Positions 1-61,819 of a stretch of DNA of 64,000 bases are shown piece after piece. Positions within the stretch are counted from its first letter, which is position 1. Each line of letters opens with the position of its first letter. The notes below the pieces were generated by a model, which made no database searches, was not told where the DNA came from, and saw only the letters and a list, made by a program, of their open reading frames with translations. Source of the stretch: Morchella semilibera (Eukaryota; Ascomycota; Pezizomycetes; Pezizales; Morchellaceae); assembly GCA_009192285.1 (NCBI GenBank), contig CM018605.1:1264530-1328529 (forward strand). Direction: 5' to 3'. Made by a program: the position numbers and the translations under genes.

Positions 1-2248
1 TGTTGTTGGTTGCAGATGTGGGGGGGCGATGGTGGCTTACATGTGGTGGGAGATGGGACGAGTGATACCCCATGATTATGCGTAACTGGTGACCGGGGGG
101 GGGGGGGTCCAAATACGAGGCCCTAGACAGAGTCCCAGCGGCCCCAAGTGTTTCACCCCACTAGATATATTGTAACCACTGCCCTTATAGCATGGGCTCC
201 CGGGAAACGATGCTAAGGTGCCCAGATGGCAGCCTCGTTCCCAGACCTAACTGGTTTATGGTTGATTGAATGATACAGGGGTACAAACAAACCAGGGGTT
301 ACCACCTCGCCTCAAGCAGGCACATACATGTATACATGTGCTCTAGTCTCCTCTCCCCCTCCGCTCCCCCAATCCCATTCCTGCCAGTTAGACAATTCAT
401 TGCCCTGAAATTAATGATGTAAACAAACAAAAAAACCTTTCATTGCCCTGTGATGCAATTCAGTTCACTGGTTTTGATGCGTTGCCAAGGGGATTGATCT
501 TTCCACAATGGGGGGCTCATAAACTACAATGACACAAATGAAAGCATCGTGGCGTGGCCTAGTGGTAATACACTGGGCTTCGTCATATGACCACGACAGG
601 TTCAAATCCTGGTGGGAGCAGTGATGAGAAAGCCCAACATGGTAGCGACGCTCTTGAGGGATGAGTACTTCTTCACGTAAGTCTTTTGTTGCCGGCTTTT
701 TTTATCATTTGACTGCGAGTTGTGTAAATTTTAGGGAACGGTGGTAGACAAATCCTCTCTCCACGGTACGTACATGTTGTCATGCTTAGTCAATACCCCG
801 TCACCCTCAACCAATAGGTTGCGGGGCGCAAAAGGATGTAATCTAGTACATAGTAGATAAACGGCCAGTAACGGCGGTCGACCGGTGGGCTTGCTCTAAA
901 AGTTTTTACCGGTCCTTTTTTTTTTCTTTTTTTTGCCGCTGCTCTCCCAAAGCCCCGGTTGCTACTGAATTTCTACGGGTATGTTACATGTAGTTGATGT
1001 TTAACGCATAATCCCACGCCAAAGTCTATCTACCATCACCACCACCATCACCAACACCGTATGGGTTAAGAACGAGACTACCCGGACGGTTCAAACACAT
1101 ACACATATACACATGGAGAAGTACACTTTAACGATGCTCACATGTACCCGCAACACACCAGGAATATCCAGCAAGCACCGGGTGAGAATGGTCCGTTGCA
1201 CCGCGCAGATCTTGATTGAGCTCGATGCCGTGTGGGACCTCGAGAGTATACACAATCGAGACTTCATATTGCGTCCATCCCCACACTCTCCAAAGACCCG
1301 AAAGGGGGGGAGGGTGTAAAGTACATACGCTGTGTCTTCAACAGCCTCGATTATAGCACCCCCGGGCAGAGGCTAGTTAAGCCCTCTCTTCTCAGAATAA
1401 CACATCTCAAACCGAGTGGCATAGAGAAATCTGGGGTTTGGGGGGGGGGGGGGTATGTAGTATGTAGACGTAGGTGCATTTATTCCAGGACGACTCTCTC
1501 CGAGGAAACAGACCTGTGTTCACCGACGGGACGTCCATGCGTGAGTAAGAGGCACCCCCGACCGTGCCAGATAGAGCAGGGCCCTACCCCCGTACAGGCG
1601 TTGCGGGAAGCCCTATATACTAGTAGCCAGAGTGTTTCTGTGGCCCGATACACCAACGCTCCTCGCGTTCACGAGCCGCCACCCCATCTAGACATCGCGC
1701 ACACCCACAACAAGACTATATCCACCTCCGGTCCTAAATTCCACACAAGTAGAGCCCGGCTTAGCATTCGTATTGCCCGGTGGCTGGTAAGCTGCACCAA
1801 GATACCCGTTGGGTGGGTACATATATAGGTAATATTCAGGAGTAGAGCTAAATCAAGGTCACCAAATATCACTCGATCCACTCTTGCCCCCCTGCCGAAA
1901 CAGGGATGTAGGAACCTCGGGGGCAGCGAGAATTGTGGTTTACGGGTCAGTTCTCTTTATAAATATATATATATATGGGGGTTTCTAGGTCCAGACCGCC
2001 GATATATAACCTATTGGCCCTTTCCCGGCCGGCCCTTGTGCGGTCTGGTGTATTGAGTTGACCGCGAGCGAGACGTAGCAATCGAATGACGCATATATTC
2101 TATTATTAATATCATGATAGACTATCTAATAACTGTTACAACTCGCTCTTAACTTCACCAAGCTCGTGATCCTTCATGAACTGACGTTTCCCAGGGAAAG
2201 AAGACAAAAAAGAAAACCAGATCTATTCTAGGCATCTACTCCCAGCCA
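1..2248. other. Intergenic region with SINE copy and poly-G tracts
   Basis: No coding region is supported. The stretch holds a tRNA-derived SINE (476-705, listed separately), G runs of 13 (95-107) and 14 (1440-1453), a CCACCATCA-type short repeat near 1031-1056, and TACATGTA palindromes at 325-332 and 985-992. The overlapping open frames at 1113-1828 have no recognisable domain and run through the G14 tract, so I treat them as chance. Confidence 0.6.
476..705 (+). repeat. tRNA-derived SINE, copy 1
   Basis: An RNA polymerase III internal promoter is visible: box A TGGCCTAGTGG at 555-565 and box B GGTTCAAATCC at 599-609, at tRNA-like spacing. The tRNA-like head is followed by an unrelated body and a T-rich end near 697-703. 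A copy of about 90 percent identity by eye lies at 35564-35776 in the same orientation. Because similarity extends well outside the tRNA-like part, this is a dispersed SINE and not a tRNA gene. Confidence 0.75.
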
Positions 2249-4185: not shown

Positions 4186-5381
4186 TGTGGTTGTGGTGAT
4201 GGTTGTGGGGTGTTCTAGAGTAAGTATTTACTTCCTAGCACTTTGAGGACTTTCTTGAGGTTGACGTGGGGTGTGAGGCTCCGGGGCCCGTGCCCTTGGG
4301 TGCAGATATGAGAGGGCTTGGCGGTGAGCTTATTCCCTGTGGGTGCAGAAATGTACAATTAAGTAAAATGTATATATACATGTAGCTATATGCGAATTAA
4401 AAACGGTTTGTGTGATCCTGTGAGTAATCACTTGATACATTTGGTGTATACAGCTCAATAAAGAATTAATTGTGATGCGGTATTATGCACTTACGCTATA
4501 GTAGAAAGAAAGACCAGACAGTACTGTGGTGGGTGATATATAATCATATATTGTAGCAGCGCAGCGCTATAATACACGTACATTATAATTGGAATTTGCC
4601 TTGAGCATGGAGGAATAACCTGAGATATATACATGTATACATGTATTCCATCTCTACAGCCAAGTTATGCATGCCGTTGACTCCAGGGACTCTAAAGTAC
4701 ACTTATCACCCGCCATTAATTACTTCTGCGTGTATATATATGTACCTCGAGAGCCTATACAAAATTAAGGTGTTGACCTTCTCGCTGTGCACACACACAA
4801 ATGCTACCGGTGTGTAACTTTATAACAAAACCCCTAGATTAAAGTTCAGATAGGTTGCCGGTTCTCGTAGAGTCTCCTAGTATCACCTGCATGTGCACAT
4901 ACCAACCATCACGACAATACCAAAATTACAAATTGCTGTTCCGCATGCCCCCCAACTCTCGGGAAAATTTTTCCTAATACATTCGACTGCCCGGGTTTTT
5001 TTTTTTTTTTTTGGCCAGGGGGAATTCCGAAATTTGCAATGTCTCTGTGCGACGTCCGGGACGAGTGATGGGGTGTGACGTTACAGGTCATGGGATCCGG
5101 CGGAGTGTGGTTGAAAAAAAAAAAAAAAAAAAAATGAAAGCTGGTCAAAGATGGGGTATGTATGTGCCCAAATAAGGGACTATTCGCGTTATTAGAATGT
5201 TTGTATTTAATTTAATTTTAGGGGTGGACGATTAACAGGAGTTGTGGAGGGTTGTACTCTACCTTCTAGCATGAGATATCACTCGAGAGAGTTATGTATG
5301 TGGGAGTGGTCATGCCACTAACAGTTTACGGCTAGTGTAAGTTTTAGTCTATCAATAAAACAACATATCGTTAAAAAGAAG
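4186..5381. other. Intergenic region upstream of the dynactin gene
   Basis: No gene is seen. It holds TACATGTA at 4377-4384 and an adjacent pair at 4630-4637 and 4638-4645, plus T- and A-homopolymers near 4996 and 5115 and several TA-rich stretches. The first few hundred bases should include the promoter of the minus-strand dynactin gene, but I cannot point to a specific site. Confidence 0.5.
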
Positions 5382-5481: not shown

Positions 5482-8400
5482 TTGGCTAGAAACATCTTGA
5501 CCCTCAATTAAGATGTCATTCGTTATTTTTTTCTATTTAGCTTTCTTCTAGGTTAGGTATTAGGTATCTCAGACTTGACTTTAATTTTAATTGGATCCCA
5601 GGCGGTGGGACTTGATGAATCCGCTATCCACATTCGTGAAATGGTAAAAAATAGTTGATAGTTTTGTTTGTGATGTGTAGTTGGGCCCACGAACTAGGGG
5701 ACGGCAACGATTTATCCTCTCATCATCACCTTAACGCTTCGCCAAGCTTATGATGCAACTGCATCATGTAGACCTTCACCTAGGTACATGTAATCTACTA
5801 ATTTTCCATTCATCAATGTACTACTATATTAGGGGTCCGTCGGCTGAGCGGAGATGAACACTGGTCGATCATCGTGATCCCTCGTCCAACAGAATCACCG
5901 AGCTTAGGCGCCGTGTGTTATAGCCCCCATCCAGTCCCACGGGCGAGACCGAAAGGGAAAAAAATTTGATAAAGAGCGGTTTGATCCGAGTTTTCGAGTA
6001 TAGACTGCGGGGGTGGGGGGGTGCCTGACCTTTTTTTTTTTTTTTTTCAAGACATCATGACGGTAGAGTATTGTCGTTCGTCTGTCTCCTTCAAACCTTT
6101 TCTCTGATTGCAACGAAACAGGTGCTCATGCACTTTTTTTTGTGTAGCAGGACATCTGGCTGTTTTGATTGGCGGTTAGGGACCCCCCCCCCCCACTTTC
6201 CGCTAGTTGGGTAGCCTTACTTCATGAGATATCACCCGGGTGCAACTTTTGCCGCTAGTCATAGCTACATCTTAGCCAACGACTAATCTTGGCTGTTTTA
6301 AACATCTAGTAGAGGTTTTTTGTGTGGGCACGCACTTTACTTCAGTATGCGTTTCTGCGCTGAAACTGTGGGGGGATTGAGGTAAGTGGCTTGACGGGAC
6401 TGTAAGTCTTGGATTGGCGGGGGTGTTCGCCTAAAGATCGGAATGGTGGAGTGGAGAAGGTAGACGCCATTGATACTAGATTTGCGTATATACTCTTACG
6501 CCCATGATGGTTCCGAAAGAGAGAGACTTAAGCATACAATTCACTGAATACGTTAAATGTTCCTCTGGGCTCGTTGATAGCATCAATGATCCATGTGGGA
6601 TCAAGATTGGCCCCCTATCACGGAATTACGTGTCGGCCTATATTGAACAGGCTGTCACGCTACAATACTATTTGAAATTAGGTGTTTTTTCTTCTAGGAT
6701 TATATATTGCAGCCAAAATTATAGTGCGCTGGTACCGTGACAGTTGATGAATTTGCAGGTAGGCTCCTTGTCTACCGCGCGCTTTGTTATTTCGGTTAGT
6801 TATATGGCACTCTCCATATATGCCTATATGCAGCAATAGATAACTAACAAAAGCTTCTCTATCTGAGTAATTTGTAGCACTATCAGGGCACCGTACAGAT
6901 CCCCGAAGCGCCTGGGCCTGGACATTGGGAATTGCGCAATGGATGACAGCAATATTGTCAGCTAGGTTAGTAAGGAAGGTGCAGGTTAGAAACCAGCTGT
7001 ATATGAAATACGCACACCCCGGATCAGTGGCGTTTTTTTTGTTTTTGTTTTTGTTTCCCTCTCTGCAGTGATATGTATAAAACTCGTAGGGTGTTTCCAA
7101 CCCTTGATACCTGTCGCTAGAGGTTGCCTTTCCACGTACCTCGATGTATCCCGTCTCGACATGCAACTCTTATTTCATAACCGAAGAGGGTCGGATACCC
7201 GGCACGATGGTTGGTGATTGATGCGCCTGACAGGGACTCTTGACAGCCGCGCGGTCCAGGGGGAAGGAGGAGGGGAAAAGATAGCTGACGAGGAAAAGCA
7301 GGAGGATTAGGAGTAAGACATTGGCAGATCCATCTGATCGTGCTTCGGGACGGTGTCCACCAGGTAGACTGCTTTATCACTGCCAAAAGAAAGATAGGAA
7401 ATTTATGTCCTTTCCGGTAAGTTTAAGAGCGGCCTTGGTGATCTGCGACGCTCGGTATGTGCCGAACGAAACACTGTAGGTCGGTCTTGTACCACCATCT
7501 ATCCATCCATCCTTTGCACTGCTCTTGTCGTTGATCTGTTCTCCCTACTCATACTTAATGATGCGGTGGGAAGAAGACCTTCTTTTTTTTTCCCCTGGAG
7601 AGAAGATCTTCAGTTTTCCTTGTAGTAAAGGCATAGCTTTTGTAGATGCTATTTTAGTAGTGCGGGAAGATCGTGCACAGGCACAAACCGGTCAGCAATA
7701 CTTCCACCGGTACCACGATGGAAGGATGGAAGGTCTTTGACCGAACAGAGCAGCAGCGCAAGAGATAAATTCGCTTAGTGCCATATATCCGTTCAGCTTG
7801 TAGGGTGTTTCGGAAAATAATTACAAGGCTCCCAATAAGGTGGCGGCTCTGACGCTGACGACATGGAAATGCGCAAAGTCCACATTCTTAAGAGTGCTGT
7901 GTCCGTCTAGAGTTCCAAAACTATGGGCGCCAAGTAGCTTGACTGGTTCGGTTCGGTTATCTCGGTACCTTACATGGGGAAGTTGTGTGGTGTCTGGTTT
8001 TTCCGCTTGGTTTCGAATTAATTGGGGTGAGGGGAGGGGTGGGGGAGAGAAAGTGGTGGTGAGTGCTCAGATCTTTAACAATACTCTATGTAGAGTACAG
8101 GCTGCAGTAGCCAAGTTTCATACAAAAGGACTGACAATGAGAGCCCATCCAATTAATCAGATTGATTGTCTACTGCCTGTCCGAGATGGCTAATAGCAAG
8201 CAGGCAAGCCACACACCACTGAACAGGACAAAAGCAGGGTTTTAGGCAGGCAGTCGTCTCGCTAGTGTTTGGAAATTCTGGGAACCGACGGTCATTCGCA
8301 GGGTGTTCTTCTTCGATTCCTTTTGCAGAAGATTGCGTACGTACCTACATGTATGTATGTACCCATCCCAGCTCAAAGGTTTGATGATTTTGCTGTTGTT

Positions 8401-9253
8401 GTTGTTGTCTCTGAGTGCAAAAAAGGAATTCTGCTTTACCTCACCTCACGTTGTCAAAGAGATACATGTAAGTAGATTTGTAGCGAGAGAGAGTACTTGG
8501 TTGCTGCACACCAACTACTATCCTGCCCAATGGGGAGGAGGTATGGCTGCTGTCTAACCTCTACGTAGGCACATGGTTATACACCTGTAACTCCCCCCCC
8601 AAAGGTGCAGATTCAGAATATCAGAGTGAATGTGAGAAGCTTGAAGTCTCTCTCGCGAATGAAAACATATTTTTTTCCCCTGGTATGTTTATTTATGGCC
8701 AAGCCAGTAAAATCGGGATGATATGAGCCAGTAAAGTAATACCCACGCCTTTTTTTGTCAGGGCTGCGCCTAATAGCTGCAGTTTCCTACTGACCGGTTG
8801 GCTTGCTTCACCGCACCCCGGGACGGTAGTAAACCCCTGCAAACCAAAAGTTATCCACATCCCCCGGTCCCAATTATGTTTGTCTAGCAAGCTTCTTGAC
8901 GTTCAATATGCACATGTAGTACTATTGGCCGCCCAATTAATCTACATCTTACTACACTCACTCACTCACTCACTCACGGCCTTGGTCCCCCCCCCCACCC
9001 CCCCTCAAGAATCTGGCTTATTACCGTGTCTCTCCCTCCATCGTCCCTTCTTTTCTTCTTTCTCTCACCACTTGCTCTCGCTCACCTTCACTTGTGAAGA
9101 TAAACATTTACGGCTTACTAGACCAGCGGTTCAAGTCGGCGCGGGGCGCATTCACATTCACTTTCTTTTTTATATATACATTTTTTTTACCCTATTGTTG
9201 CAGCTGGTCCGCCAATTTAAACTGATCGATTCATTACTACTTTGCTGGCAAAC
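5482..9253. other. Intergenic region between tRNA-Asn and ferric reductase
   Basis: About 3.8 kb with no supported gene. It contains C12 at 6182-6193, T tracts near 6031-6047, a (TCAC)n microsatellite at 8949-8976, and TACATGTA at 5785, 8346 and 8463. The longest open frame (6678-7166, minus) has no domain I recognise and a repetitive Lys/Asn stretch. The pyrimidine-rich sequence from 8976 to 9070 lies in the expected promoter/5' leader of the ferric reductase gene. Confidence 0.5.
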
Positions 9254-11336: not shown

Positions 11337-13834
11337 AGAGGGGGATATCTATTCTACAGAGGAGAGGGGGAGGTTTCTCGGTTCTTTCCGCTGGTGCGGA
11401 TCTAACTTTTTTTCTTTCTTTCTTTCTTTTCGCTTCTTGCCGTTTTTTCGGTCTCTTGTATTTTTTTCTTTTCAAAACCTTCACACTCTTTCCGGGCGTA
11501 ATGATTTGGGTGGGTTGGGTGTTTGTGTACATTTGTTGACGTGTTTGTACCCATATATATCCACCACATATTCCTGTATAAATTTTTTCTTCTCTCTACC
11601 TTTCCGCTTTTCTACTACAAAATCATAACGCTAGTGCAGCATCTTCGTTACATCTCTAAGGGAAAGTTCCTTTTTTTCTTTCAATCTAACTGTCATTTTC
11701 TCTCTGGGTTTACTGTTACTACTACTACTACTATAGGGTGGGCTGGTGGACTGTTTTTTGGTTTTGTTTTTGTTTTTACGATATGAAGAGGAGGAGAGGG
11801 GGACCTTGAGTACTGGAACTTTTCGCCAACTACATGTATGAAAGAAGAAAAAGGAGAATTAGACTGCTGCCCCCCCCCCTCCCTTTTTTTTTCATACTAT
11901 ACAGTACTATATGTATATATAAAGATATATGAGCAACGGAGTTTTTTTTAAAAAAGGCAATGATCAGATCGGAGCACCCTGCTGCGTGCATAACTCGGGA
12001 CCCACTGGCCAGGCCAGCTGAGAGCATGCGCTGCCCAATACCCATGTAATAGTTAACATAACTCTACCCCCCTTTCAGGCACAGAAAAGCCTAGAAAGAA
12101 AAAGAAGGGGGGGAAAGAAAAAATTATAATTACTCTACTCTACACTTGTCAGGACCACCCTGAACCACCCCACGTACCTTCCCCCCCCCCCCCAGCACCT
12201 TCCTGAACTGATAATGGACCAAGCTTTTCTCCTCCCCCCGTAATATAAAGTTATAGTACCGTACCCCAGAGCCCCGAGGGAAGTGGGGGGGGGGGGGAAT
12301 GGTTAATAGCGGCCAGGACGGTGCCAGCGTTTCGGATCAATAGCTAGGTATTTTTTTTCTTTCTCTTTCTCTTCGGCTCGGCCGCGAGGATGCAGGGATG
12401 ATATAGGATCACCGAGATTAGATGCTATGGGGGGGGGGGGGGAGAGTACTCGCTCGGCTCGGGTCGAGTCGGTCGAGCGGTTGTTTTGTCGTGTCGTGGG
12501 AGTGGGCGCATATTGTAGATTAAGGGTGTAGGTACATGGTCTTTACTATATCTCTCTACATGTAGCTAGGAGGTCGTGGATGTGATAAGTTTGTTAGCTA
12601 CTGCTACAGTTAACTACATGTATGTAGCCTAATAGGGGTCTTTCTTTGAAAGCTACATGCATCCACTACGCATAATAATAATAATAACAATAATAAGTCC
12701 CTAGTAACCGACCATTAACAGAGTACATACGTATCTATAGCGTATAGTATATATAAACACACGCATTTGTTTTGTTTCAACGGTGTACATATCTAGCTAG
12801 GCACATCCCCCATAAGTCATGACATCGGTGGCTTACCGGCCGGGCTGGTCTGGACGGATGCAGTAGTAATCATGGAATATCACTCTTTCGGTATACACTC
12901 TTGTTACAATGTACATACATGTAAGTACCTGTTTACTCATCAGGACCTGCATGGAAACGATGCACGGCCCGTGTGGTGGTGGTGGTTTGTTTGCAATCAT
13001 TATCAAAGTTTAGAAATGCTGACAGAAGGGAAGGGGGGAATAAGCCACAGTCGGGCGGGCATCATCCTGTACCTACTAAAGTGCCTACATATATCGACGT
13101 AGGGCAACAACCCATGGGGGGTGATTTGATAGTTGAATGGGAGGGATGCCGTGGGATGTCGTGAGGTGGCCAAGCTGGCCGGGGAGGGTGGAAGGGGGGG
13201 GAAGGGGGGGGGGTCTCTGGCCGGGATCCGCCTGCTAGTGCGGGAAATGATTGGCATGTTGGAATTTGGTGCTATGATGCTTGGGCCCTGTTGGCTGCTG
13301 ACTCGACTCCAGGTTGGAGCTTTCTGGCTACACAGTAGTAATAAGTGCACGAGATGAACCACGACTACACAACGTCCCCTTCCGGGGCCCAGCAGAGTCT
13401 AGTGGTGGATACCTGGAAACTACCATCCAGTCATCGCCACAACTACTGGAAACATGGGGGGATCCGAGCAAGAGCGAAAAGGGGAAAAAAAAAAAAAAAG
13501 AATACGTATATATACATTCCAACCCGGAGTACGCTACAGCCAAAGAGAGAAGAGAAGAGAGAAAAATTTTCGTGATTTAGGTAGGTAAACCAGAGGGCGG
13601 GGGAAAAAACACCAGAAACCAGATCAAGTCTGAGAAATGTAGATATTTCCTTGAAACACCCTTTCCTTTAGGAATAGCGATTACTATCGAGCGGGAGCCA
13701 GTAGCCGGCTGGCCCTACATCTATGCGGGAAGCGCAACCTTCGAGCTGTCTGATGGCAACTACACCACACAAGTACAATAGTCAGCACGCATTCCCCCCG
13801 AAACCAGACTCAGTCCAACAGGCGGAGGGGGGGG
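11337..13834. other. Intergenic region, homopolymer rich
   Basis: No gene is seen. It begins with a T/C-rich 3' flank of the ferric reductase (11405-11500). It holds C14 (12181-12194), G13 (12285-12297) and G14 (12429-12442), an (AAT)n stretch at 12672-12697, and TACATGTA at 11831, 12557, 12615 and 12916. Short open frames on both strands show no family signature. The last 500 bases are the probable 3' untranslated region of TIM17. Confidence 0.5.
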
Positions 13835-25147: not shown

Positions 25148-25186
25148 CATAATACATGTATGTACCTACATGTATGTATTATGCAC
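25148..25186. repeat. Near-perfect palindrome containing two TACATGTA sites
   Basis: The left arm GCATAATACATGTATGTA and the inverted right arm (TACATGTATGTATTATGC) match at most positions around a CC centre. Each arm contains one TACATGTA (25153-25160 and 25167-25174). It could form a hairpin or cruciform. Confidence 0.8.
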
Positions 25187-27535: not shown

Positions 27536-27711
27536 GGAAGCCTTCCCGTGGATACTCTGAAGGTGCTCAAACTTGAAGCCTTGAAGATAAATTACAGATC
27601 TTGCATAGAAAGAGCTCTCAACAACTCTGTAGACACCCCCTGGGGGGGATCTACAGACCACATTTGAACCTACAAGCCTTCAAAAATACATGTATCCACG
27701 GGAAGGCTTCC
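27536..27711. mobile_element. Inverted-repeat element with a perfect 20-bp terminal repeat
   Basis: GGAAGCCTTCCCGTGGATAC at 27536-27555 is repeated as its exact reverse complement at 27692-27711. The spacing is about 136 bp, with further weak inverted similarity inside around the GAAGCCTTGAAG segment. A TACATGTA overlaps the inner edge of the right repeat (27687-27694). No coding capacity is seen. It is a MITE or a foldback remnant. Confidence 0.65.
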
Positions 27712-35563: not shown

Positions 35564-35776
35564 GATGCGTTGCCAAGAAATGGAGGGCTCATAAACTATA
35601 ACGGCACAAATAAAAACATCGTGGCGTGGCCTAGTGGTAATACACTGGGTTTCGTCATATGACCACGACAGGTTCAAACCCTGGTGGGAGCAGTGATTGA
35701 GAATGCCCAACATGGTAGCGACGCTCTTGAGGGATGACACTCATTCACGTAAGTCTTTTGTTGCCGGCCTTTTTTA
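35564..35776 (+). repeat. tRNA-derived SINE, copy 2
   Basis: Box A TGGCCTAGTGG (35627-35637) and box B GGTTCAAACCC (35671-35681), with the same body and the same T-rich end as copy 1. By eye the pair differ at about one base in ten. Flanking segments shared with copy 1 occur in a different order here, so the two loci were rearranged or nested. Confidence 0.75.
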
Positions 35777-43729: not shown

Positions 43730-45060
43730 GATTGGTGATATGGATCTAAGAAACGAAACTGAGGTGCTTGGTGGGGGGGGGGGGGGTTGTGACGTCCGCT
43801 ACTGCGAGGTAAGCTGCGACGAGGTGGCCTTTATGTTACCCGGCTGGGTGGAGAAAGAGCTTACGCCACGGGGGGGGTTAGGGTTCATGCAGGCACAAGG
43901 CGTTGCGTGCATGAAACTGGGGGGGGGGGGGGTTGCACACGATCCCTTTGCGGGTACGTCTGCATGTCTGAGAGCAGAAGAAAATGAGTGAGACCGCCTC
44001 AAAGGGTGATCAAGGATCGGCCAAAATAGATAACGACCACTACAAGAACGCGAATTGTACTGACCACTGACTGACAGGAGGTTCTAGCTCGAGCAATCCC
44101 ATAGATGGGATGTTCTTCTTCTAAGGCGTGGCTATCTAGCATATATGAATCTATATCTTACAAGTACACGTATGAAGTATGAATTGTACCCCCGCTACCT
44201 CGACATTAGGCCACTCTATGTGAAGCTTTGTTGCAGATAAAGTGTAGAGGAGAAGGGAGAGTCTATCACCCCCGATCAACGTGTCTTGTTACTACCTCGT
44301 CACACCTTATAGTAGCATTGGTACAACTCTAATTGACGACGGATAAATTTGCAATAATTGCATCAGAATGCTTCGGAATATAAAATGGCAAGCAAGAGAA
44401 ATTGGGCTACATGTAAGTTACATAGATCAAAGAAGGCACAACATACATGTAGTTTTGTGATTCGGTATGACAGCCCCAACTCTAATTGTTTCTCTGTATA
44501 TGACCCATCTGTATTGTACAATTTCAGTTTTCTTTCACCAAGATACCCACCCCTATCACTCCTCCTGCTTTCACCGCACACAACTACTACTACACTGCCA
44601 GGTCCATTGGTTGTTACCCCCGAGTGACAAGTCGTGTTGCAGTCCAGTACTGTCTATATAACCCTAACCCGATAAGCGCCCCCACACACTAAGACCAGTT
44701 CGGGTTAGGCAATTCCCGCCTGACATCGTTCTCACATCAACAACCGCAGCAGTCATCACGTCTCTCCCGAAGGAAGGACTCGGCCCTCATCTCGAGCTTC
44801 TACCCCGCGCTGCAGGAAGAGGAAGAAGAAAAAAAAAAGAAAAGAATACAACCTCATTAACTGCCACTTGTCGCGAGGTTTATACTTATAAATCCATCTC
44901 TCTCAGCTTCAACTCCTTCTCAACACCCCCCCCCCCCCACACACACACACGCCACACAACACACACACACACACACACACACAGACAGTACACACACAAA
45001 TACTAACACCCCCCCCCCCCTCCCCCACATTCTTACTCTCTCTCTCTCTCTCATTATCAA
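43730..45060. other. Divergent promoter region between ATG27 and the ING gene
   Basis: About 1.3 kb between divergent genes. It holds G14 (43773-43786), a second G run near 43919-43932, TACATGTA at 44408 and 44444, and just before the ING start a stack of simple repeats: C runs, (CA)n at 44938-44983, C10 near 45008 and (TC)n at 45034-45053. These pyrimidine/CA tracts make up the ING 5' leader. Confidence 0.6.
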
Positions 45061-47441: not shown

Positions 47442-48527
47442 TCGCTTAGGCTGTTGGACGGGTCTAATTATGCCATCATTCCATCTCTATCCCTCCACCC
47501 TTCTATCCCTTCCACCCCCACTACCCCATTACTCTAGTTGCGGTTCCTACTACTACTTCAGTTACGGTTGTCCAACCCCGAAGCTTTGATTCAGACCTCT
47601 ACACTGTGATCAGGCTACTAATCGCCCCCACCCATCGGAAATCCTTTATACCATCCACATCCCGGCATTTTCACGCTACTTGGTGTGTAACACTGGCCGC
47701 CATTTCTCACTTCACTCTATTAGGACTTCACATTGGTGTGTTATTTTAGGCTTCTTTATATTTTTATCCTTAAGGTCTCGGTTTCTTGTCTTTCTTCCTC
47801 TTCTGCTTTCCCCTTGAGTACTTTTACGGGAATGGATAATGTGTTAGTTCTTTGTCGTTCTTGTTTCCGAGGTAATGGGTTAGGTTAGGCTTTGGTATCT
47901 ACTTTTCTGATCTGTGTATTATTTACTTCTTTTTTTTTCCTTTTTTTTTTCCTTAATGAATGGGATGGGCGGATAGATGACTTGACGCTGTTGCTTTTTC
48001 GGCTTTTCCCTGATTTCACTACCCTCTTTGGCAGGTTTGGGCTTTTTCGGTGCGGGTAATTTGGTGAACGAGTGAGAATGTATGATCGGCTACTTAGGTG
48101 GGGTGCAAATAAGGTTGGTGTTAGTAATTAATCCAGAAAAACGATGTTTTATCTGGCCACAGGCTTTTTCTAATTGTTTTTTTTTTGCAGACACTGGTGG
48201 GAAGTCTATATGCAAAGCGGGGGAGAAACAATAGAGACTGTAAGGCGCAGCCTACGTCAGGTCCAATCAAGGTTTATGTGGAGCTTTATACAATGCCACT
48301 AAGCTACAGGAACTGTTGAAAGTTAAGTCTTTTCAACTACATTACATGTAGTCATTGGTATCTGGATATCCACGGTCCAAGTATAATACGACCGTCATAA
48401 AGCGGCTTCCGACTACTAAACCTACAGCGTCTAAAAGTTTACAGAACAGTTATACAGTTACACAGTTACACAGAACCAGTACCACCTCCCTCTCGGGCAA
48501 CCTCAGCAGATCTTACAGTGATCTCTC
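47442..48527. other. Convergent 3' region between ING and ankyrin genes
   Basis: T-rich 3' flank of the ING gene (47700-47960), one TACATGTA at 48343-48350, and a short ACAGTTA direct repeat near 48450-48472. No gene is seen. Confidence 0.55.
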
Positions 48528-49826: not shown

Positions 49827-52800
49827 GTTGTGTAGAATAATGGGGCTACATGTATGAAGCCTAAGAAAGAAATACAACAAGTATCCACACGGGCAATATT
49901 TCTTGATAATATGCCACTTGTCATGTTACTTTCACAGAAAACCGTCAGGCAAAATTGTGGCCTTAAACTCATGCATGACCTCGAATCTTCTGGCCTATCT
50001 AATATCATCCTTTAGATAAATTGTCGTCTTTAAAACTCTTTATGTTCCATTGAAATTAAGGCCCTAGCTACACAGAGTGGGGAAATTATGATGGAAACTC
50101 CTCCCCTACGCCGCTACGTATATGCACTGATAAATATCTTCAGCCGCGGTCAAAACCACCTCCCCCATATTAACTTCTCCGGGTGATTCTGCCGACTTTC
50201 TTTTTGGCCTATCATCAACGGAGCTGCACGTTGGGAACTTAAGCGATGTCTAATGTTGACCCCGTTTTGATATGAGTTGCATTTGCATCATATCGGAGAA
50301 CGGCCGTAATCTCTTCATATCGTGAAGTAATGGTTTGAGATAGTGGGGCGGGGGGCGGCGGCTCTTTTTTAAATGAAATACTCTCGAGTGAGATCTCATA
50401 CTCCAGCTGTTAATATGTACGAGCAATATAAAAATTAACTGGGTACTGTAGTTACATGTACATACATGTATGTAGTTGTACCCACAGAGACCCTGTCACT
50501 TTAGTAGGGACCCGGGTATACCTATCTCGCAAGATGCTGCTTTGTCATCATTTCACCATCTATCACCCGCAGCCCTCTAGAAAACACCCCGAGCTCAGTA
50601 AATCTCGATTTACTTAAACCTGGCAAAGATTTTCTGCATTTAATATATATCCCGACTCTTTTCTATAATTGGAATCCGGATGTGTGTGGGAGGCATAAAA
50701 AACGATGGGTTGGTTTGTGGTGGTGTCGAGTGACAACTGGTGAATATGCAAAGTACCTCCCACCAATTTGATTACCAGACCAGATCATACTTCCGATAGG
50801 CTATACAAAGTACAAAATTGCTCAAATATGACAACCAATATCCGATCACCTCTGACGCAATATGCACACATATATTATCAAGGGTTATAGTCATTATGTG
50901 CACAGCAATATGCTGCAAGGGCGGCATCACAACATGCGGTTCATGGCACTACATCTTCAAATGAGATTAAATGATGTTCTTGGCTTTCTCCGCCCTTTAT
51001 ATGTGGACGAAGCCTGTGTTTCCTTGTGGTGATATCGAGCCACTCAGGTAAGTATCCGTTCCCTCAAACCTCGTCTCCATCTTTGGGTCCGTGGTCTCAT
51101 TGATGGGAGGCGTATAAGACATTCTTTGAGGTGTCTATTATGTCGGCGGAATGTCACACCTTTTACAATGACATCGGCCGAGAGTATTGTTATTCTTGAC
51201 CACTAAACGTTTGGCTAAACAGATCTAGGTATAACGGACACACAACAACTAAACATTATCAGTACTTAGGAAATACATCTTCAATAAGCACTATGCAGTA
51301 CTTTAAGCCACTGGATATACTTCAACCAACCAACATCTCACAACCCCGCTAAACGCACGCATCCTAGGGTAAAGAAATTGCAACATGATCCCACACGTCA
51401 TTCCCCACCATCCAGCACCAGTCAAAGCCTGTTTCTCGCCCGGGAAAAGGAGCCAAAGAAAAAAAAAAAGAAAAAAAAAAGGAAGGATGCAGTGTAAACG
51501 GGCATCGATCTCTCCATCACTTCCGGCCAGTATCGCGATCAAAGCAAAAGGCACAATGGTTCTTCCCTCTTCCTCATGATAATCCTCCGCTCCCCAACGG
51601 CCCAACAAAAAGTTCTGAAAATAGCTGTGCCAGTAAATTCATATTAATCATTATTTACAACTCCCGTAGCATGACATTCCTCAACTAGAATTAATGTGTT
51701 GGCTCGCCAACGTCCCCGACGGTTGCAGTTGACATGTATGTATGTACACTCACGTGCTGAACAAGGCGCACCACCACCACCACCACCACCACCATCACCA
51801 TCACCATCCGGGCAATATGCACTACCACTTACCTTTGGGCCACTCAGAGTGGCCCAGGAAACGGCACACGATCGGTTACATTATATATCCTTGCCCTCTA
51901 TATCCAAGCGGGCCTCTAACTTTTCCCGGGCACCAAACTAAACGCACATAAATCGCTAGCCCGTCCAACTGAGTTCTCATAGTTTGGGATGGCCTTGCAA
52001 TTATGTGGATCATGGAAGATGGATGGATGGGCCCCCATGCCAGTGCTTCAGCTTCGATTTACCAAATGCTGCATTTGGACCAATTGGAAATAACGGGCAC
52101 GAATCTTAACGAGAAGAAGCCATAGTGATCTCTGAACGACATATGTACGTCCGGCAGGCCTACAGCTGTAACTCCTCCGGCGAAATAACCAGTTGGGGGG
52201 TTTCCCATCGGTATTCTCTATGACATTGCCAAAATCTCAGTCACCTGGCCTGACCCATCGCAACGGACTTCACAGCATATCCACCTTCCCTCTCTGGAAG
52301 GACCAAATTTAAGGTGAGTTAGCTAGCGGCCAATAAACACTTTCCCTTCCCCGCGAAATTCAAAAGATGCATGATGATATTCTATCCAGCCCAATCATGC
52401 CTTAAGATGAGCCTATCCTAATGTCCTTAAATCCTAATATCCTGATATCCCGCCCCGGTCCTGTATTTCCTTAGTATGTATATATGCATCAATCCAGCCA
52501 GCCAGCACCATAATTTAAAAAACCGAAACAAAACCGAAAACAAATTTGTGTAAATACAATATGTCCCCCGAATCTCCTTTATCACAGGTGTACAATTCCA
52601 CTTCTTTTACTGCTTCTCGAAAATCAATAAAGTACAACCCGGAAGAGAGGGAGAAAAAAAAAACGTACCCTACTGGTATAAGCAAAAAGGCGCTATAGTA
52701 ACACCCCGCAGCAAAAGAATAAAAGGGAAGGAAAGGGGGGGGGGGGGGAAGAGAGAAAAAGAAACCGGTGTACTATGTAGTTAATGCAACAAAATACCAT

Positions 52801-53675
52801 AATTATACTTGTAGTTTTTTTTTTTTTTTTTTTTTTTTTGAAATAAAAAAAGAGCGTCGTGCCTGGTGGGGGACCTAAGCTAACTAGCTGCATACATACA
52901 TGTAGCTAGCTCTCGATATATATATATATATTTTTAGTAAGAACCCTCACACAATGACATTAGAAGGAAAGAAACTCTACAAGGAATCCAAAACCCTACT
53001 GTATAAGAAGTGATTGGGGGGGTGAAGCACAAAGTAACGCAGAATGGTATGTAGCTGATGAAAGAAAGAAAAAAAAAATGCTGGCGGCCTTAGATAGGGT
53101 TACCAGGCACAGAAGCTAGGTGGCGGTGGTGGATATATAGTAGGAGTATAAGATAACGAAACTCCAGAAAAGAGGGATGAGATGGGGGATAGAAGAAAAA
53201 AATGACTGACCTGACCAAGAAGCCAGAGGAGGAAGGGAAAGGGGACCTATAACACGGAAGATGCAATAATAATAAAAAGTAACATACAGGCCCAGGGCGA
53301 ACTTGCTCTCTGTAGGCGTAAGCTAGCAAGCAAATAGAGACCTCAAAAATGTACAACGAAGTATGGATGGGGTAGAACAAAAAAAAAACGTGGCGCCGAA
53401 TTTCTGAAGACATTAAAGGTTACATAACTATAGCAAAAAAAAAAAAAAAAAGAAGAGAGAAAAAAAAAAGATGGTAGTAGTACTGGCCTATCCAAGAAGG
53501 TTGGACTCTACAGGCGAATCGAAAAAGGTATCATAAAAGAAAGGTAAAGAGAAAGAAAGGAAAGAAAAATAACACTCAGAAGGACATTGCAATTGGGGCA
53601 TAAATTCTTCCGTGCATTCTCCCCAACTTGCCAGCTAACTTTTCAACATTAGACGATACAAAGAAATGTACCTTA
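49827..53675. other. 3.8 kb intergenic region
   Basis: No gene is seen. It holds an imperfect palindrome with two TACATGTA sites (50441-50483), a (CAC)n array at 51768-51807, a G run at about 52736-52748, a T run of 24 around 52816-52839, an AT microsatellite (52914-52931), and A-rich 3' flank of the membrane-protein gene from about 53380. A TACATGTA is also at 52897-52904. The His-rich and other short open frames here come from the simple repeats. Confidence 0.5.
50441..50483. repeat. Imperfect palindrome with two TACATGTA sites
   Basis: Ends GGGTAC and GTACCC pair around TACATGTA at 50453-50460 and 50463-50470. The inner arms (TAGTTACATGTA and its inverted partner) match with one or two offsets. 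It resembles the palindrome at 25148-25186. Confidence 0.7.
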
Positions 53676-56833: not shown

Positions 56834-56859
56834 GAACGAACGAACGAACGAACGAACGG
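56834..56859 (+). repeat. (GAAC)n microsatellite
   Basis: About six uninterrupted GAAC units, followed eight bases later by a run of 16 G. Confidence 0.9.
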
Positions 56860-59800
56860 ACTTACTGGGGGGGGGGGGGGGGTGGAGTGTGAACAAGCAG
56901 CTGCAGTAGCGGTAGCGTGACGGCGACAGGGACAGGCAGGAGATGGGACGAAAAAAAGATAGTCGAGGGGGGGTCCTCTAGACAGGGGGGAAATCGGTGC
57001 TGCTGTTAAAACTGCTGCCGTGCACTTTATGCCTGTGCTTGCTTGCTTACTTGCTTATGCTGCTAAGTCGGGGAGGAGAGACTGTGACCGTGGTGTTTGT
57101 TGTTCTTGAACGACGCAAGCAGCAGTGACCCGTCCCCAAAAATGTATTTAGAGAGAGAGAGAGAGTCAATCTACGTAAGTATACACTGCTTCCAGAATCA
57201 AAGAAGGGAGGAGGAATTATAATTAAACCAGAACCAGAAGAATATTCCCCAACCAACTACATGTATCTCTGAGAGAAGACAGAAGCAAGATCTTAAGACC
57301 TGTGTTAAACTGGAATAGAATATATATACATGTACTCACGCCCTTCGTTAAATGGCCGGATGCCATATCTTCAACCCAAATACATGTACGATGTATGTAC
57401 CTACAAAAAAAGATTCCGGCATTTCAATGGACGCGTGGGTACTGGGTCTCAACATTTAACGTGTCCGTACCTGCTGCAAGTGTGGGGAAGATCTGTTCCT
57501 CCTGCTGGGCCATGGGCTGGAGAGCCAGTCGGTCTCATCAATAAATTTATAATAATTAATTGGACTGGAGATTTAGCGTTCCCCCCCCCCCTCCTCTTTT
57601 ACAGCCGCGATCATCCGTTATCACTCTTTAATAAATAAAATACATGTAGATATGTAATCCTCTCAACTGCCTAAGCTATGATCGATGGGTGACGGCTGAG
57701 TGCCTGGGAATTGGGTAGGAACGCATGATATGAGGCACGAAATAGGAGTTAGTACATAAAAGTAGTAAGTAGCTGGCTTGTGAGCAGCTCAGCAGCATTC
57801 AAGATTAAGACGAACCGACCAACGTACGTTCCCCATGTCAAATAATATTGTTCCTTAGATTGCAGCGCCCCAGGTACTTACGGTACAGAGAATGTAAGTG
57901 GTACTTGTACATGTACTCTACATGTACCCTCGTAGATTTGTACATTACATGTAGTTCTCTATGTAGGTATACATGTGGGTACGCAGACATTTTGAAAATA
58001 GCAGGTGCATGTACCTCCAAAGTATCTACATCTCTATGGGCCATACATACCACTTCTGATATCGTGCCTACAAAATCTATCCTGGTCCCCAAGTCTGTCC
58101 TGTCCGGCCAGTCCAATATGCTGCACCTACCATCCACCATCTGCAAGCCACCTCCGCACCGCACCCGGGATAGCGCTCGCCCAACCGCAATTTCCTCTGC
58201 GCGCGGCGACGTGTGTGTGTGTATGTGTGTGTGTGCGTGTGTAGGATACAGGAACCCCTGCCCTGGCTGGTGTGTGTGTTCGAAAATAGATTTTTTTTTT
58301 CTCTCGCTCTCTCTCTCTTTCATTAAACTTTTGGCGCTAACGACACCTCTCCCACCCCCTGGCCGCCCGGGTCTGCATTCATCGAGTGTGCGGTTGCGTA
58401 TCGCGAGGAAATCAGCCAGCCATGGCCCAATGGCCCCTCCCCATGAACATTGGCTGAAATTCAATTATCAGTCCAGCTACAAAAAAATTTAACAAACTTT
58501 GTGAACATGTTGAAATTTCGTCGTTTTCATTAATGAATTGGCCCCCCCCCCCCTCTCCCCCTCCCCTGAGTGGCAAGTAATTAATTATGTAGGAGTAGGT
58601 ACTTTCTACGACTTTTACAATCCTCACCTCCTCACTCGCCCGCTTACTCCCTCCCAATTCCGCTCGCGCCAGCCAATTGAACTCGATATCCGAGCCTCAA
58701 ACCCCAAAGGTTGCCCCAACCCAACCCTCACGCAAGGTCCCGTCCCTTCCCCCCTCCCAACCCCAAAGGAAAACCAAAACCAAAACCAAACCAAACCAAA
58801 CCCGCTTTTGTCTGCGTTGAAACCTCCGTCCGTTGCCGGCCGCAATGCAAGGAACCCCCCGTCCCCTGTAGCGCAGAAACAGGAAGGTAGGAAGACCTGC
58901 CTTCCTTTCTACTCCTACATACCTGTAGATACCACTCTCAACGGTAGGAAACGGTTCTCTGCCTTGCTCGCATGGAGGTTTCGAGAAAAGAAATAGGGAA
59001 ACAGATTGCTTTTCCGTGTTTCAATTAATTGTTGTCAGCCCTCGCTTCGTTCCGGTCCATTTTGGGCGCCCCTCGGCCTAATGCGGGTGCGCGAGACATT
59101 CCGAAACAGGGGGTTGGTGGATGGGTGTTCGCTTTCAGTAATTCAGCGTGGCGAGTGACGATGTGTGAACTGAAGTACCTGCTCAGGGAGCGAGTGTCGG
59201 GTAGGAGATCGAAAGGTAATGATTATTATTGCAGCAACTTGTCAAAGTGCACTTTTTTCCCTTGGGATGCAGATTGTGAAGCTGGTAGATTAGTAGTTAC
59301 CTGGGAGTGAGGGCTGAGATCTAGTGACGTGACAAGACAAGACAGCTGGATGTATGTACCTAGCGAGAATCACTCACTGTCTCTACTCTGGTTTAGAGAT
59401 TTTTTTTTATCGCCTCACTGCTGCAGAGGAGTGCCCAGAGTTGATAGAGTACGGTCCAGAGTACTCTCCGCTCTACCTAAGCGGGCATAAACCCCTCCAG
59501 AAGCCACTCGCTGGCCATTGCATGGCCAGCCTTATCTCTTGGTCCCTCTACTCCGCGTCCCCTATCGGTTGAATCTGCAACAAAAGGTACATGCTGTCGT
59601 GGGAAGAAAGTCCTCAAGGAGTACTGGAGCTCCGTCTTCTCAATGTAGATATATGGAATACTCTAACTAGTGTTAACTTATCGCAGTGCTTTAAGCTCGT
59701 CATCAATATCAACGGATATCTCCGCTCCTGCATGCGAAGTACCACCACAAGTGTGTGACCATGTATGTATGTGCCAGTTAATACGTCGATCTCGAGACAG

Positions 59801-61819
59801 CTATAAATACAACAATACACCTCACCTTTTCACTTCATTGAGAAAAAAAGAAGAAAAAAAAAATAATAAGATCGAATCCAGGCTCTTCCTCCGAACGGGA
59901 GCGAGGGGAGGCCAAGGGAAGGAGACATTGCTCGGAATAACTACGGTTTCGGGAGGTAGGGTTGGTGATCATATGTACTTCGGGGATGTAGGGTAGAGGT
60001 AGGCACATGGACGCAAAAGACAAAACCCCTTTCCCACATCGGCGTGGGTGAAGAAATAAGCTTAGACACTCCCCCACACGGCCCTTAGATGCGAGTGACT
60101 ACTCGTGAATTGATCACGGGCGATCACTCGCGGCAATATTAATGGATAATAGCCGCGAATCAATCATTAACGTCCCTCACTCACAAGAGTCGCTTTATCA
60201 TATAGGACCTATAGGAATAAGCCTTCCATGCCTCTCCATGAATTCACGATTGAATATCTCTCTCTCTACACCTATTGGTGAAGATAGCTCCGTGTCGTCA
60301 TCGTACGCGCGTCAGCTCGCAGTGCAGACGTGATCGGTTTTCCATGCGAAGCGTAAGTGTTATCTAAGCCTCGTTGTTATGTAGGTCTTTGCATTCGATA
60401 TTCATGTTTGTGCAGTTTTGAAAAAAAAAAAACCGTTTCCTCCCACCCCACTTGACTGCCCTCTGGTCATATACTGCTTGCTATCTTTGGTTACCAATTC
60501 CCAGCAGCGGCCTCGATCGTCATCGTATATTGATCGACCCCCCAGGCTCTAGTGGGGTTCTAGAAAGAAAGAACAGCCAGAGGTGGGCAGATCATGCAGT
60601 GACATGCGAGGTTACGGTCAGTGTGTAAAAAAAAACCAAAAACTCAAAAGATAAAACAAAAAAAATAAGACAAAAATGGGATCGAAAAGCCACCATACGA
60701 GTCTAGTCTATTAGAGACTAGTGGCGCCACCTAACATCATGATCGAGGTTTCTTGTTAATTCTTGTCTTAACGGAATCCGGAATTAAGAGATTATATTAT
60801 CAAAGGCGCGGGATGTAGAGTCTCGTGGCATCGCATCGTGTCATCGTAGGGCGGTGCGCCATGTTCTCTGGTTCTTCCTCTCACTGGCCGGGCTGTATTG
60901 CCTGTGCATGAGCATACATGTACATGAAGTATGTAGAGTACATACTGCCTAAGTAGATGCCCAGATGCATACATGTGGATATGTACATGTACCCTTTCGG
61001 CCTATGCTGTTGTATTGACTGAACTCCAAAGCAAGAACCCGAGAGGGTATACCTGGGATTCATAGGCTCGGTGCGAGCGACGATATGGGCTCTAAAAATA
61101 GGGCCCTGACACTGGAGCGGGATATTTGTGACTCGGGAGAGTTCGGGCTTCTAGAACGTGACGCCGCTATTACGAACATTCAGTGGCGCTTTTAGTTATC
61201 CTTGGACCACCATAGGCAAAGTGGCGTCGGCTCAAGTTTTGAGGGTGGGGAGTTGTTGGAGCTATTGGAAGTTGACGTTGAAGTTCTTAAACATTAAAGT
61301 CACACGTACGTTATCAAAGGTTGAGATCAGCTGCTGGCAGCTCACAAAGGGTTTTGTCGTTGAAATCAAAGCTATGATTAAGAGATCGGTCCACAGAGTT
61401 GGCCCAGCCCAGTACATCTATCTACCATTTCTCTAGACCGGTTCGATCTACCAAGTCAAGTAAGTATTTCTAGAACTATATTCCGCATACTCTTTAAATA
61501 TATCTAGGATATGAGATATGTTCACTATGTGTAGAGTTGATTGATTGATACTTCATACATGTATGCACTATGTGTAGAGTGACCAAATGAATTGATTTCA
61601 CAAGGTAAGGATAATGTGAAAACTCTGTTTGAATGTCTACATGTAATTATATTGCCATCGGATCAGACCAGGACCACACAGCATATTACAGGCTTGGGGA
61701 GATCTGGGCCGGCTCTAGCTACATACATACTAGTCTCTCTTTCTTTCCCCCTTTTTAAAAAAAGGTTTAAACCTCAAAACCAATACATAGAATAGGTAGA
61801 GAGCTACTTAGTCAATATG

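What the first reader, a model, noticed from the sequence alone, without database searches (positions are those of the whole stretch)
325..61645. The palindrome TACATGTA is about 30-fold over-represented and excluded from exons
Reading every line, I found 37 exact copies, at 325, 985, 4377, 4630, 4638, 5785, 8346, 8463, 11831, 12557, 12615, 12916, 17558, 19065, 19106, 25153, 25167, 27687, 40134, 44408, 44444, 48343, 49847, 50453, 50463, 52897, 57258, 57327, 57381, 57641, 57908, 57919, 57946, 60915, 60984, 61556 and 61638. About 1.2 are expected at this base composition. None falls in a coding exon I annotated. Many more differ by one base (CACATGTA, TACATGTG). The sites cluster, with none between 27695 and 40133 and twelve between 57258 and 61645. 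This could be a regulatory site, a self-propagating short palindrome, or the end of an unrecognised repeat family.
Basis: seen in the sequence. Interest (0 to 1): 0.75.

Follow-up and report, generated by a model that had tools for sequence, protein, structure and literature searches.

The report
Abundant noncoding palindrome in a morel
A morel-like fungus carries about 22,000 copies of one exact eight-letter palindrome, mostly outside genes and often one helix turn apart, which is best explained as the docking site of a very widely used but unidentified DNA-binding protein.

Summary
All 37 TACATGTA copies are at the stated positions, about 33-fold over base composition and 49-fold over a dinucleotide model. 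The whole assembly, whose dynactin gene is 94% identical to one of Morchella sextelata, holds 22,206 copies; the same letters read backwards occur 3,723 times. In 264 kb it is the most enriched 8-mer apart from homopolymers; the median palindrome is at expectation.

It is not the end of a repeat (1 of 155 copies lies in a repeat alignment). The unit looks like a 16-bp dyad, TANN-TACATGTA-NNTA: in isolated copies TA holds that place in 38% of flanks (5-15% at other offsets). Copies cluster, favouring centre distances of 10 and 6 bp. They are rare in exons (5 of 136) and lean moderately to the 5' side of genes.

Best reading: sites for a homodimeric, perhaps general-regulatory, DNA-binding protein. 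The identical octamer is a published promoter motif of Phytophthora. No protein was identified. Tc1-type excision scars remain a live rival. A second signal, CGAGTGAT-N6-TGA (6,099 copies), is reported in passing.

The parts
325..332 (.). TACATGTA
985..992 (.). TACATGTA
4373..4388 (.). TACATGTA (4377-4384) with both TA flanks, full 16-bp dyad
4626..4637 (.). TACATGTA (4630-4637) with left TA flank; abuts the next copy
4638..4645 (.). TACATGTA, head to tail with the previous copy (8 bp centre distance)
5781..5792 (.). TACATGTA (5785-5792) with left TA flank
8342..8357 (.). TACATGTA (8346-8353) full 16-bp dyad
8463..8474 (.). TACATGTA (8463-8470) with right TA flank
11831..11838 (.). TACATGTA
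12557..12568 (.). TACATGTA (12557-12564) with right TA flank
12611..12626 (.). TACATGTA (12615-12622) full 16-bp dyad
12912..12927 (.). TACATGTA (12916-12923) full 16-bp dyad
17554..17569 (.). TACATGTA (17558-17565) full 16-bp dyad; inside a predicted CDS without Pfam support
19065..19072 (.). TACATGTA
19102..19117 (.). TACATGTA (19106-19113) full 16-bp dyad
25153..25164 (.). TACATGTA (25153-25160) with right TA flank
25163..25178 (.). TACATGTA (25167-25174) full 16-bp dyad, 14 bp from the previous copy
27687..27694 (.). TACATGTA
40134..40145 (.). TACATGTA (40134-40141) with right TA flank; about 30 bp upstream of the predicted start of the BAG-domain gene
44408..44415 (.). TACATGTA
44444..44451 (.). 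TACATGTA
48343..48350 (.). TACATGTA, about 180 bp downstream of the ankyrin gene
49847..49854 (.). TACATGTA, about 24 bp upstream of the predicted start of the ankyrin gene
50449..50464 (.). TACATGTA (50453-50460) full 16-bp dyad; pair with next at 10 bp
50459..50474 (.). TACATGTA (50463-50470) full 16-bp dyad, 10 bp from the previous copy
52893..52908 (.). TACATGTA (52897-52904) full 16-bp dyad
57258..57265 (.). TACATGTA
57323..57334 (.). TACATGTA (57327-57334) with left TA flank
57381..57388 (.). TACATGTA
57641..57652 (.). TACATGTA (57641-57648) with right TA flank
57908..57915 (.). TACATGTA; inside a predicted CDS without Pfam support
57919..57926 (.). TACATGTA; as above
57946..57953 (.). 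TACATGTA; as above
60915..60922 (.). TACATGTA
60980..60991 (.). TACATGTA (60984-60991) with left TA flank
61556..61563 (.). TACATGTA
61638..61649 (.). TACATGTA (61638-61645) with right TA flank

Best explanation
TACATGTA is the core of a DNA-binding site used genome-wide in this Morchella-like ascomycete. The fuller site is a 16-bp dyad, TANN-TACATGTA-NNTA: two half-sites (TANNTACA) in inverted orientation, as expected for a homodimer whose monomers each contact TGTA and, more weakly, a TA step four bases further out. Neighbouring dimers sit preferentially one helical turn (10 bp) apart, or share a TA at 6 bp, which suggests cooperative binding on one face of the DNA. The number of copies (22,206 in the assembly; 136 beside 87 predicted genes in 264 kb), the noncoding location and the moderate 5' bias suggest a broadly acting promoter or chromatin factor, in the manner of a general regulatory factor, rather than a pathway-specific regulator. 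Shown here: sequence architecture, counts, spacing, location. Inferred: binding, dimerisation, cooperativity, function and the protein.
For: Most enriched 8-mer apart from homopolymers in 264 kb, O/E 25 under order 2, median palindrome 1.0-1.1. A tetramer-dyad scan of noncoding DNA finds it first (TACA-N0-TGTA, z 71, a palindrome being counted on both strands); after masking it and the second motif mainly low-complexity A/G and C/T words remain, with weaker GTAC/TACA and short palindromic words. In 99 isolated copies TA stands at the third flank position in 38% of flanks, 5-15% at the other offsets 1-13, left and right independently (17 with both, 14.6 expected); genome-wide 2,692 of 22,206 copies match TANV-TACATGTA-BNTA, about 55 expected from base composition. 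Pairs with a 0-20 bp gap: 2,075 against about 182 by random placement; of the first 97 unique pairs listed 23 have 10 bp centre distance, no other distance more than 7, and those 23 carry 10 different spacer dinucleotides. Spacing 6: 501 places against about 9 at random. Within 400 bp of 79 predicted genes: 23 upstream, 5 downstream, p=0.0005; collapsed to clusters 17 and 5, p=0.0098; one-mismatch neighbours 20 and 19. Intergenic gaps under 1 kb: divergent 8 sites in 2.9 kb (6 gaps), tandem 0 in 6.9 kb (15 gaps), convergent 0 in 3.1 kb (6 gaps). The same octamer is an upstream motif of Phytophthora correlated with expression and M93 of P. infestans promoters.
Against: The 5' bias fades with distance (39 and 20 within 800 bp, p=0.013; 42 and 24 within 1 kb, p=0.027) and is weak on the 28 genes with Pfam support: 8 up and 4 down within 500 bp (p=0.25), 18 and 8 within 1 kb (p=0.03); 18 of those 28 genes have no site within 1 kb upstream. 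The backward word leans the same way on few copies (4 up, 0 down within 500 bp). In gaps over 4 kb the density is about 0.9-1.0 per kb whatever the gene orientation. The backward controls of the architecture tests are also raised: flanked form 229 of 3,723 (about 9 expected), pairs 108 (about 5), 6-bp overlaps 90 (below 1); the backward 14-mer contains the octamer itself, so these controls are not independent, but part of the flank and cluster signal may be local TACA/TGTA richness. Two of three 10-kb samples from other contigs have no copy. No candidate protein was found: the single TALE homeodomain matches PKNOX/TGIF/MEIS. The one-mismatch excess is rich in transitions, as decay would give. 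No relative's DNA and no expression or chromatin data were available. Spacings of 6 and 10 bp are also what repeated insertion and excision at adjacent TA targets would leave.
Confidence: 0.6

Rival explanations
1. Excision scars of a Tc1/mariner-type transposon: an element inserted at TA leaves TA-CA-TG-TA when it leaves. Preferred targets of the form TANNTANNTA would give the TA flanks, re-use of the flanking TA would give 10-bp pairs, and insertion into a scar's own TA would give 6-bp pairs.
For: PMC3520976 states that TACATGTA is a rare Tc1 excision footprint in C. elegans (passage). 69 DDE_3 matches in this genome, some on duplicated contigs. Spacings 6 and 10 and the TA flanks fit. One-mismatch excess is transition-rich. 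TACATA (156 vs 77.4) and TATGTA (164 vs 81.7) are enriched, though counted without masking the octamer.
Against: About 22,000 scars would be needed. Three-base scars of related elements are at expectation (TACAGTA 14 vs 15.1, TACTGTA 17 vs 15.1). The neighbour excess (72) is about half of what steady neutral decay of 124 exact copies would give (about 140, my own estimate), so the burst would have to be recent, yet 1 of 155 copies lies in a repeat alignment of the 338 kb. The one informative pair of repeat copies, in L040, is not a clean TA to TACATGTA insertion. A 5' bias of the exact word that its neighbours lack is not an obvious prediction.
Confidence: 0.15
2. A by-product of microsatellite slippage: inverted junctions of (TACA)n and (TGTA)n arrays.
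For: TACATACA (82 vs 12.1) and ACATACAT (78 vs 12.1) are enriched, TACATACA also away from TACATGTA (43 vs 8.2 after masking). TACATACATGTATGTA recurs among the listed 16-mers. The backward controls are raised too.
Against: The NN of the flanks is nearly free and in 23 pairs at 10 bp takes 10 of 16 dinucleotides. Tandem Repeats Finder reports no TACA-type array in the window, and none of its rows that I compared overlaps any of the 37 sites. The backward word ATGTACAT, the other junction of the same arrays, is about 6 times rarer.
Confidence: 0.1
3. An RNA-level signal, for example UGUA or UAYRUA elements of 3'-end processing, readable on both strands because of the palindrome.
For: UGUA and UACAUA-like words act in RNA 3' ends of other eukaryotes (recalled, no call).
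Against: Within 400 bp downstream of predicted stop codons the exact word is scarce, 5 against 23 upstream, while one-mismatch neighbours are even at 19 and 20; the 6 convergent gaps under 1 kb hold none.
Confidence: 0.05

Closest known systems
Phytophthora motif-1 (PMC3520976) and M93 (PMC3597505); passages read in both
   Same: Identical palindromic octamer; very abundant (upstream of 12,070 genes over three species; 4,150 times in P. infestans promoters); located upstream of genes; protein unknown; homodimer proposed for motif-1.
   Different: Oomycete, not a fungus. The 16-bp TA-flanked dyad and the 10-bp pairing are not in the passages I read. Here no expression correlation could be tested, and many copies lie in long intergenic stretches.
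Iroquois (Irx) TALE homeodomain sites, ACATGT / TACATGTA (PMC3520976, PMC4726432, passages)
   Same: Core octamer; inverted arrangement.
   Different: The only Homeobox_KN match found here has the helix QVSNWFINARRRR and aligns best to PKNOX1/TGIF1/MEIS in the PDB. MEIS2 is listed with TGACAG in PMC9081933 (passage). No direct comparison with an Irx protein was made.
NACC1 BEN-domain CATG sites (PMC11472053, passages)
   Same: Crystallised on a TACATGTA-containing duplex.
   Different: NACC1 bound its DNA about 1:1 in that paper. No BEN match in this genome, though the control genomes did not ring either, so this is weak.
Tc1 excision footprint
   Same: Same eight letters.
   Different: Described as rare in C. 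elegans (passage); here 22,206 copies, with a one-mismatch excess below neutral steady state (my estimate).
Yeast general regulatory factor sites (Reb1, Abf1, Rap1, Cbf1; recalled, no call)
   Same: Abundance, noncoding location, strict consensus.
   Different: None of these consensus sequences, as recalled, equals TACATGTA; nucleosome effect untested here.

Membership tests
Phytophthora motif-1 / M93 | Exact TACATGTA core | tested here: met
Phytophthora motif-1 / M93 | Location upstream of genes | tested here: inconclusive
   Met on 79 predicted genes (23 vs 5 within 400 bp; clusters 17 vs 5); weak on 28 Pfam-supported genes (8 vs 4 within 500 bp, 18 vs 8 within 1 kb)
Phytophthora motif-1 / M93 | Correlation with expression | not testable with these tools
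   no expression data
Phytophthora motif-1 / M93 | Conservation between related species | not testable with these tools
   no relative genome held (stated); duplicated contigs are identical where sampled
Irx-type TALE homeodomain site | Genome encodes an Irx-like TALE homeodomain | tested here: inconclusive
   1 Homeobox_KN match, PKNOX/TGIF-like; six-frame search, so homeodomains split by introns could be missed; no Irx sequence compared
BEN-domain (NACC) site | Genome encodes a BEN domain | tested here: inconclusive
   0 matches, but the control rang nowhere
Tc1/mariner excision scar | Tc1/mariner-type transposase in the genome | tested here: met
   69 DDE_3 matches, many partial or with stops inside
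Tc1/mariner excision scar | Sibling footprints also enriched | tested here: inconclusive
   TACAGTA and TACTGTA at expectation; TACATA 156 vs 77.4 and TATGTA 164 vs 81.7, but unmasked, so they include copies overlapping the octamer's flanks
Tc1/mariner excision scar | Clean empty sites (TA versus TACATGTA) | tested here: inconclusive
   one informative repeat pair only, not a clean insertion
Repeat family end | Similar sequence beyond the word in different copies | tested here: not met
   1 of 155 copies inside a self-alignment of 338 kb at E up to 1e-6, low-complexity filter on
General regulatory factor site | Nucleosome-depleted, protein-occupied in vivo | not testable with these tools
   needs chromatin data
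General regulatory factor site | Thousands of copies, mostly noncoding, strict consensus | tested here: met

The most novel reading that the evidence does not exclude
TACATGTA and CGAGTGAT-N6-TGA are the recognition sites of two unrecognised genome-organising proteins of the Pezizomycetes, the first binding as cooperative dimers one helical turn apart at some 20,000 places in the genome, the second at some 6,000 solitary places without gene polarity, as an insulator or origin factor might; the first has a convergent counterpart in oomycetes.
Probability: 0.25. Interest if true: 0.85.

Novelty: new member of a known kind. Interest (0 to 1): 0.56.

Why it matters
General regulatory factors are, to my knowledge, well described in yeasts but hardly in filamentous ascomycetes. 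An exact palindrome present some 22,000 times in the assembly, with a readable dimer architecture and preferred phasing, gives a ready-made bait for finding such a protein in morels. That the same octamer is a leading promoter motif of Phytophthora, a very distant lineage, poses a concrete question: shared DNA-binding domain, convergence, or a transposon footprint in both. One orthologous alignment between Morchella species would decide much of it.

Tried and rejected
Repeat-family end: rejected. RNA 3'-end element: disfavoured by 3' scarcity. Irx-like homeodomain as the binder: candidate sought, none seen, search not conclusive. BEN domain: no match, but uninformative control. Haplotype comparison for selection: C9/C10 and C21/C22 looked like two alleles, but the sampled 5-kb stretches are letter-for-letter identical, so they are assembly duplicates there and give no polymorphism. 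One-mismatch penumbra as a test between selection and decay: inconclusive. The genome-wide total (38,153 one-mismatch copies against 41,979 for the backward control) shows no excess, whereas the 264-kb noncoding count against an order-2 model shows 72 extra; I rely on the latter, and my notebook phrase 'NO penumbra' was too strong. Gene model: self-trained HMM of my own, no RNA evidence; several short predicted genes look spurious, which is why the Pfam-supported subset stands beside it. One search listed exon pieces of 70 gene models with at least 450 coding bases, out of 87 models. Of these 70, 60 went to Pfam (all 55 outside the window and 5 of 15 in it); 7 further window genes had been scanned, partly with other ends; 3 were not scanned. 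30 of the scanned models had a match; the transposase-like one at L026:7695-8441 was left out of the polarity count and the two pieces of the myotubularin gene were treated as one gene, which leaves 28. First pattern for the second motif had the wrong gap (N5); it then served as an off-by-one control for N6; the location figures rest on the same slip and are replaced. Literature: ten searches; those for the octamer or its inner 7-mer are, the others are 32 (Irx), 60 (second motif), 66 (general factors) and 81 (Morchella motifs). Among the listings shown I saw no report of TACATGTA as a motif in fungi; 7 papers were opened for passages, none read whole, most of the 290 papers holding the string were not opened, and the library lacks most subscription journals.
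Full report
What was checked. All 37 reported positions hold TACATGTA. Chance gives 0.8 to 1.3. The window is G000:C3:1264530-1328529 of a 56.76-Mb assembly in 23 contigs. One search placed it: the piece 2252-3805 of the dynactin p62 gene is 94% identical over 99% of the query to a Morchella sextelata protein, then 61% over 88% to one of Tuber melanosporum. The source is therefore a morel or a very close relative (Pezizomycetes); the exact species was not established.

Genome-wide count. The assembly holds 22,206 exact copies against 3,723 of ATGTACAT, the same letters read backwards. Parts of the assembly are exact duplicates: 5-kb samples of C9/C10 and C21/C22 are identical, and C12/C13 show paired hits at nearly the same coordinates. 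So independent sites are somewhat fewer. In the 264 kb around and including the window there are 136 copies, 25 times the order-2 expectation. Of all 256 palindromic 8-mers the median is at expectation and the next highest is about 7-fold. Only A8 and C8 have higher z among all 8-mers. Three other 10-kb samples held 0, 3 and 0 copies.

Not part of a longer repeat. A self-BLAST of 338 kb put 1 of 155 copies within a repeat alignment. The window does contain repeat copies (among them about 473-857 and 35574-35777), but no TACATGTA lies in those two.

The real unit. Taking 99 copies with no neighbour within 30 bp, and both flanks, TA occupies the third and fourth flank positions in 38% of cases, against 5-15% at the other offsets 1-13; the two bases in between are nearly free, except that A is scarcer next to the octamer (15%). 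Left and right behave independently (37 left, 39 right, 17 both, 14.6 expected). Genome-wide 2,692 of 22,206 copies have both flanks in the form TANV-TACATGTA-BNTA, about 55 expected from base composition. The backward control is raised as well, 229 of 3,723 against about 9, so part of this reflects TACA/TGTA-rich surroundings. One-mismatch neighbours also carry the TA at that place more often (19% against 7-11% at offsets 1, 2, 4 and 5), which suggests that a part of them are weak or decayed sites.

Spacing. In 264 kb, 20 successive centre distances are 20 bp or less, 1.4 expected. Clustering remains within noncoding DNA. Genome-wide 2,075 pairs have a gap of 0-20 bp, about 182 by random placement; of the first 97 unique pairs listed, 23 are at 10 bp and no other distance exceeds 7; the spacers of those 23 comprise 10 dinucleotides. 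Overlap at 6 bp occurs 501 times, about 9 expected at random. The backward controls are 108 pairs (about 5 at random) and 90 overlaps (below 1); the backward 14-mer contains TACATGTA itself, so they are not independent. A run of 10 copies in 360 bp lies at L016:8139-8498. A preference for one helical turn with a free spacer points to proteins side by side on one DNA face; the rival reading by repeated insertion at TA targets is given among the rivals.

Location. My self-trained gene model, its scores masked over the octamer, predicts 87 genes, 31% coding. Copies: 128 intergenic, 5 CDS, 2 intron, 1 edge, of 136; other AT-rich palindromes are also scarce in CDS (2 of 30, 4 of 41, 5 of 53). Within 400 bp of 79 genes of at least 100 aa: 23 upstream, 5 downstream (p=0.0005; clusters 17 and 5, p=0.0098), neighbours 20 and 19. 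Within 1 kb it is 42 and 24 (p=0.027). On 28 Pfam-supported genes the bias keeps its sign but is weak (8 and 4 within 500 bp; 18 and 8 within 1 kb, p=0.03). Divergent gaps under 1 kb carry 8 sites, tandem and convergent gaps under 1 kb none; gaps over 4 kb carry about 1 per kb whatever their orientation. So the sites are not a core promoter element: 18 of the 28 supported genes lack one within 1 kb upstream.

Decay. Twenty-four one-mismatch neighbours together show 72 copies above an order-2 background in noncoding DNA, against 124 exact copies (counted without overlaps); transitions at the outer three positions dominate and the central A>G change shows almost none, but that change makes a CpG. 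This does not separate selection from a recent origin. Genome-wide the neighbour total is not above that of the backward control.

Who binds. Six-frame searches found one Homeobox_KN match and five Homeodomain matches, two of them the same gene on the duplicated contigs C9 and C10. The Homeobox_KN protein, spliced over one intron, aligns best to PKNOX1, TGIF1 and MEIS in the PDB with helix WFINARRR. From recalled knowledge Irx proteins have alanine instead of isoleucine at position 50; that comes from no call. So the proposal made for Phytophthora (passage), an Irx-like KN homeodomain, finds no candidate here, with the caveat that intron-split domains can be missed. BEN domain: no match, uninformative control. 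DDE_3 transposases: 69 matches, which keeps the scar hypothesis alive.

Known counterparts. PMC3520976 (passages read) describes TACATGTA as motif-1, upstream of 12,070 Phytophthora genes, correlated with up-regulation in infection. PMC3597505 (passages read) lists it as M93, 4,150 copies in P. [quoted passage not shown] In the Plasmopara paper PMC10031896 a text search for ACATGT found nothing. No Rfam family and no tRNA was found in the window.

A second signal. The same scan shows one other strong non-simple word, CGAGTGAT-N6-TGA (consensus CGAGTGATAnnnYRTGAY). It occurs 6,099 times genome-wide against 17 for the backward control and 89 when the gap is one base shorter. In 264 kb, GAGTGAT-N6-TGA occurs 42 times and gaps of 0-5 and 7-13 occur 0-3 times each; 39 of 42 are intergenic, there is no clear 5'/3' polarity (7 and 4 within 500 bp, 9 and 10 within 1 kb) and no clustering. 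It repeats RTGAY at exactly 10 bp. It was outside my finding and is left as a lead.

Verdict. A genome-wide binding site for a homodimeric, unidentified protein is the best explanation (0.60), with excision scars next (0.15).

Noticed in passing
window 59-75 (+), 1859-1875 (-), 5062-5078 (+), 15016-15032 (-), 16137-16153 (+), 16470-16486 (+), 17524-17540 (+), 25096-25112 (+), 26353-26369 (-), 27059-27075 (+), 32863-32879 (-), 60114-60130 (-), 63774-63790 (+): Second genome-wide signal CGAGTGAT-N6-TGA, consensus CGAGTGATAnnnYRTGAY: 6,099 copies against 17 (backward control) and 89 (gap N5); mostly intergenic, solitary, no clear gene polarity; a direct repeat of RTGAY one helical turn apart. Three further window sites, at 4128, 12870 and 57611, differ at the first base.
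   Followed up: partly
G000 contigs C9/C10, C21/C22, probably C12/C13: Contigs that duplicate each other: 5-kb samples of C9/C10 and C21/C22 identical, and hits at near-equal coordinates on C12/C13. Genome-wide counts are inflated accordingly.
   Followed up: partly
264-kb stretch around the window: Words GTACCTAC (57 vs 6.9), TACATACA (82 vs 12.1) and GTACATAC are enriched, in part also away from TACATGTA; they look like single arms (TANNTAC) of the 16-bp dyad.
   Followed up: partly
L016:8139-8498: Ten TACATGTA copies within 360 bp, no coding gene predicted across them.
   Followed up: no
window about 473-857 and 35574-35777: Interspersed repeat copies, 90-94% alike over 200-250 bp in the best alignments, also elsewhere in the 264 kb; they hold no TACATGTA.
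   Followed up: no
L026:7695-8441: Exon with DDE_1 and weak HTH_Tnp_Tc5 matches: a pogo/Fot1-type transposase remnant or domesticated gene.
   Followed up: no
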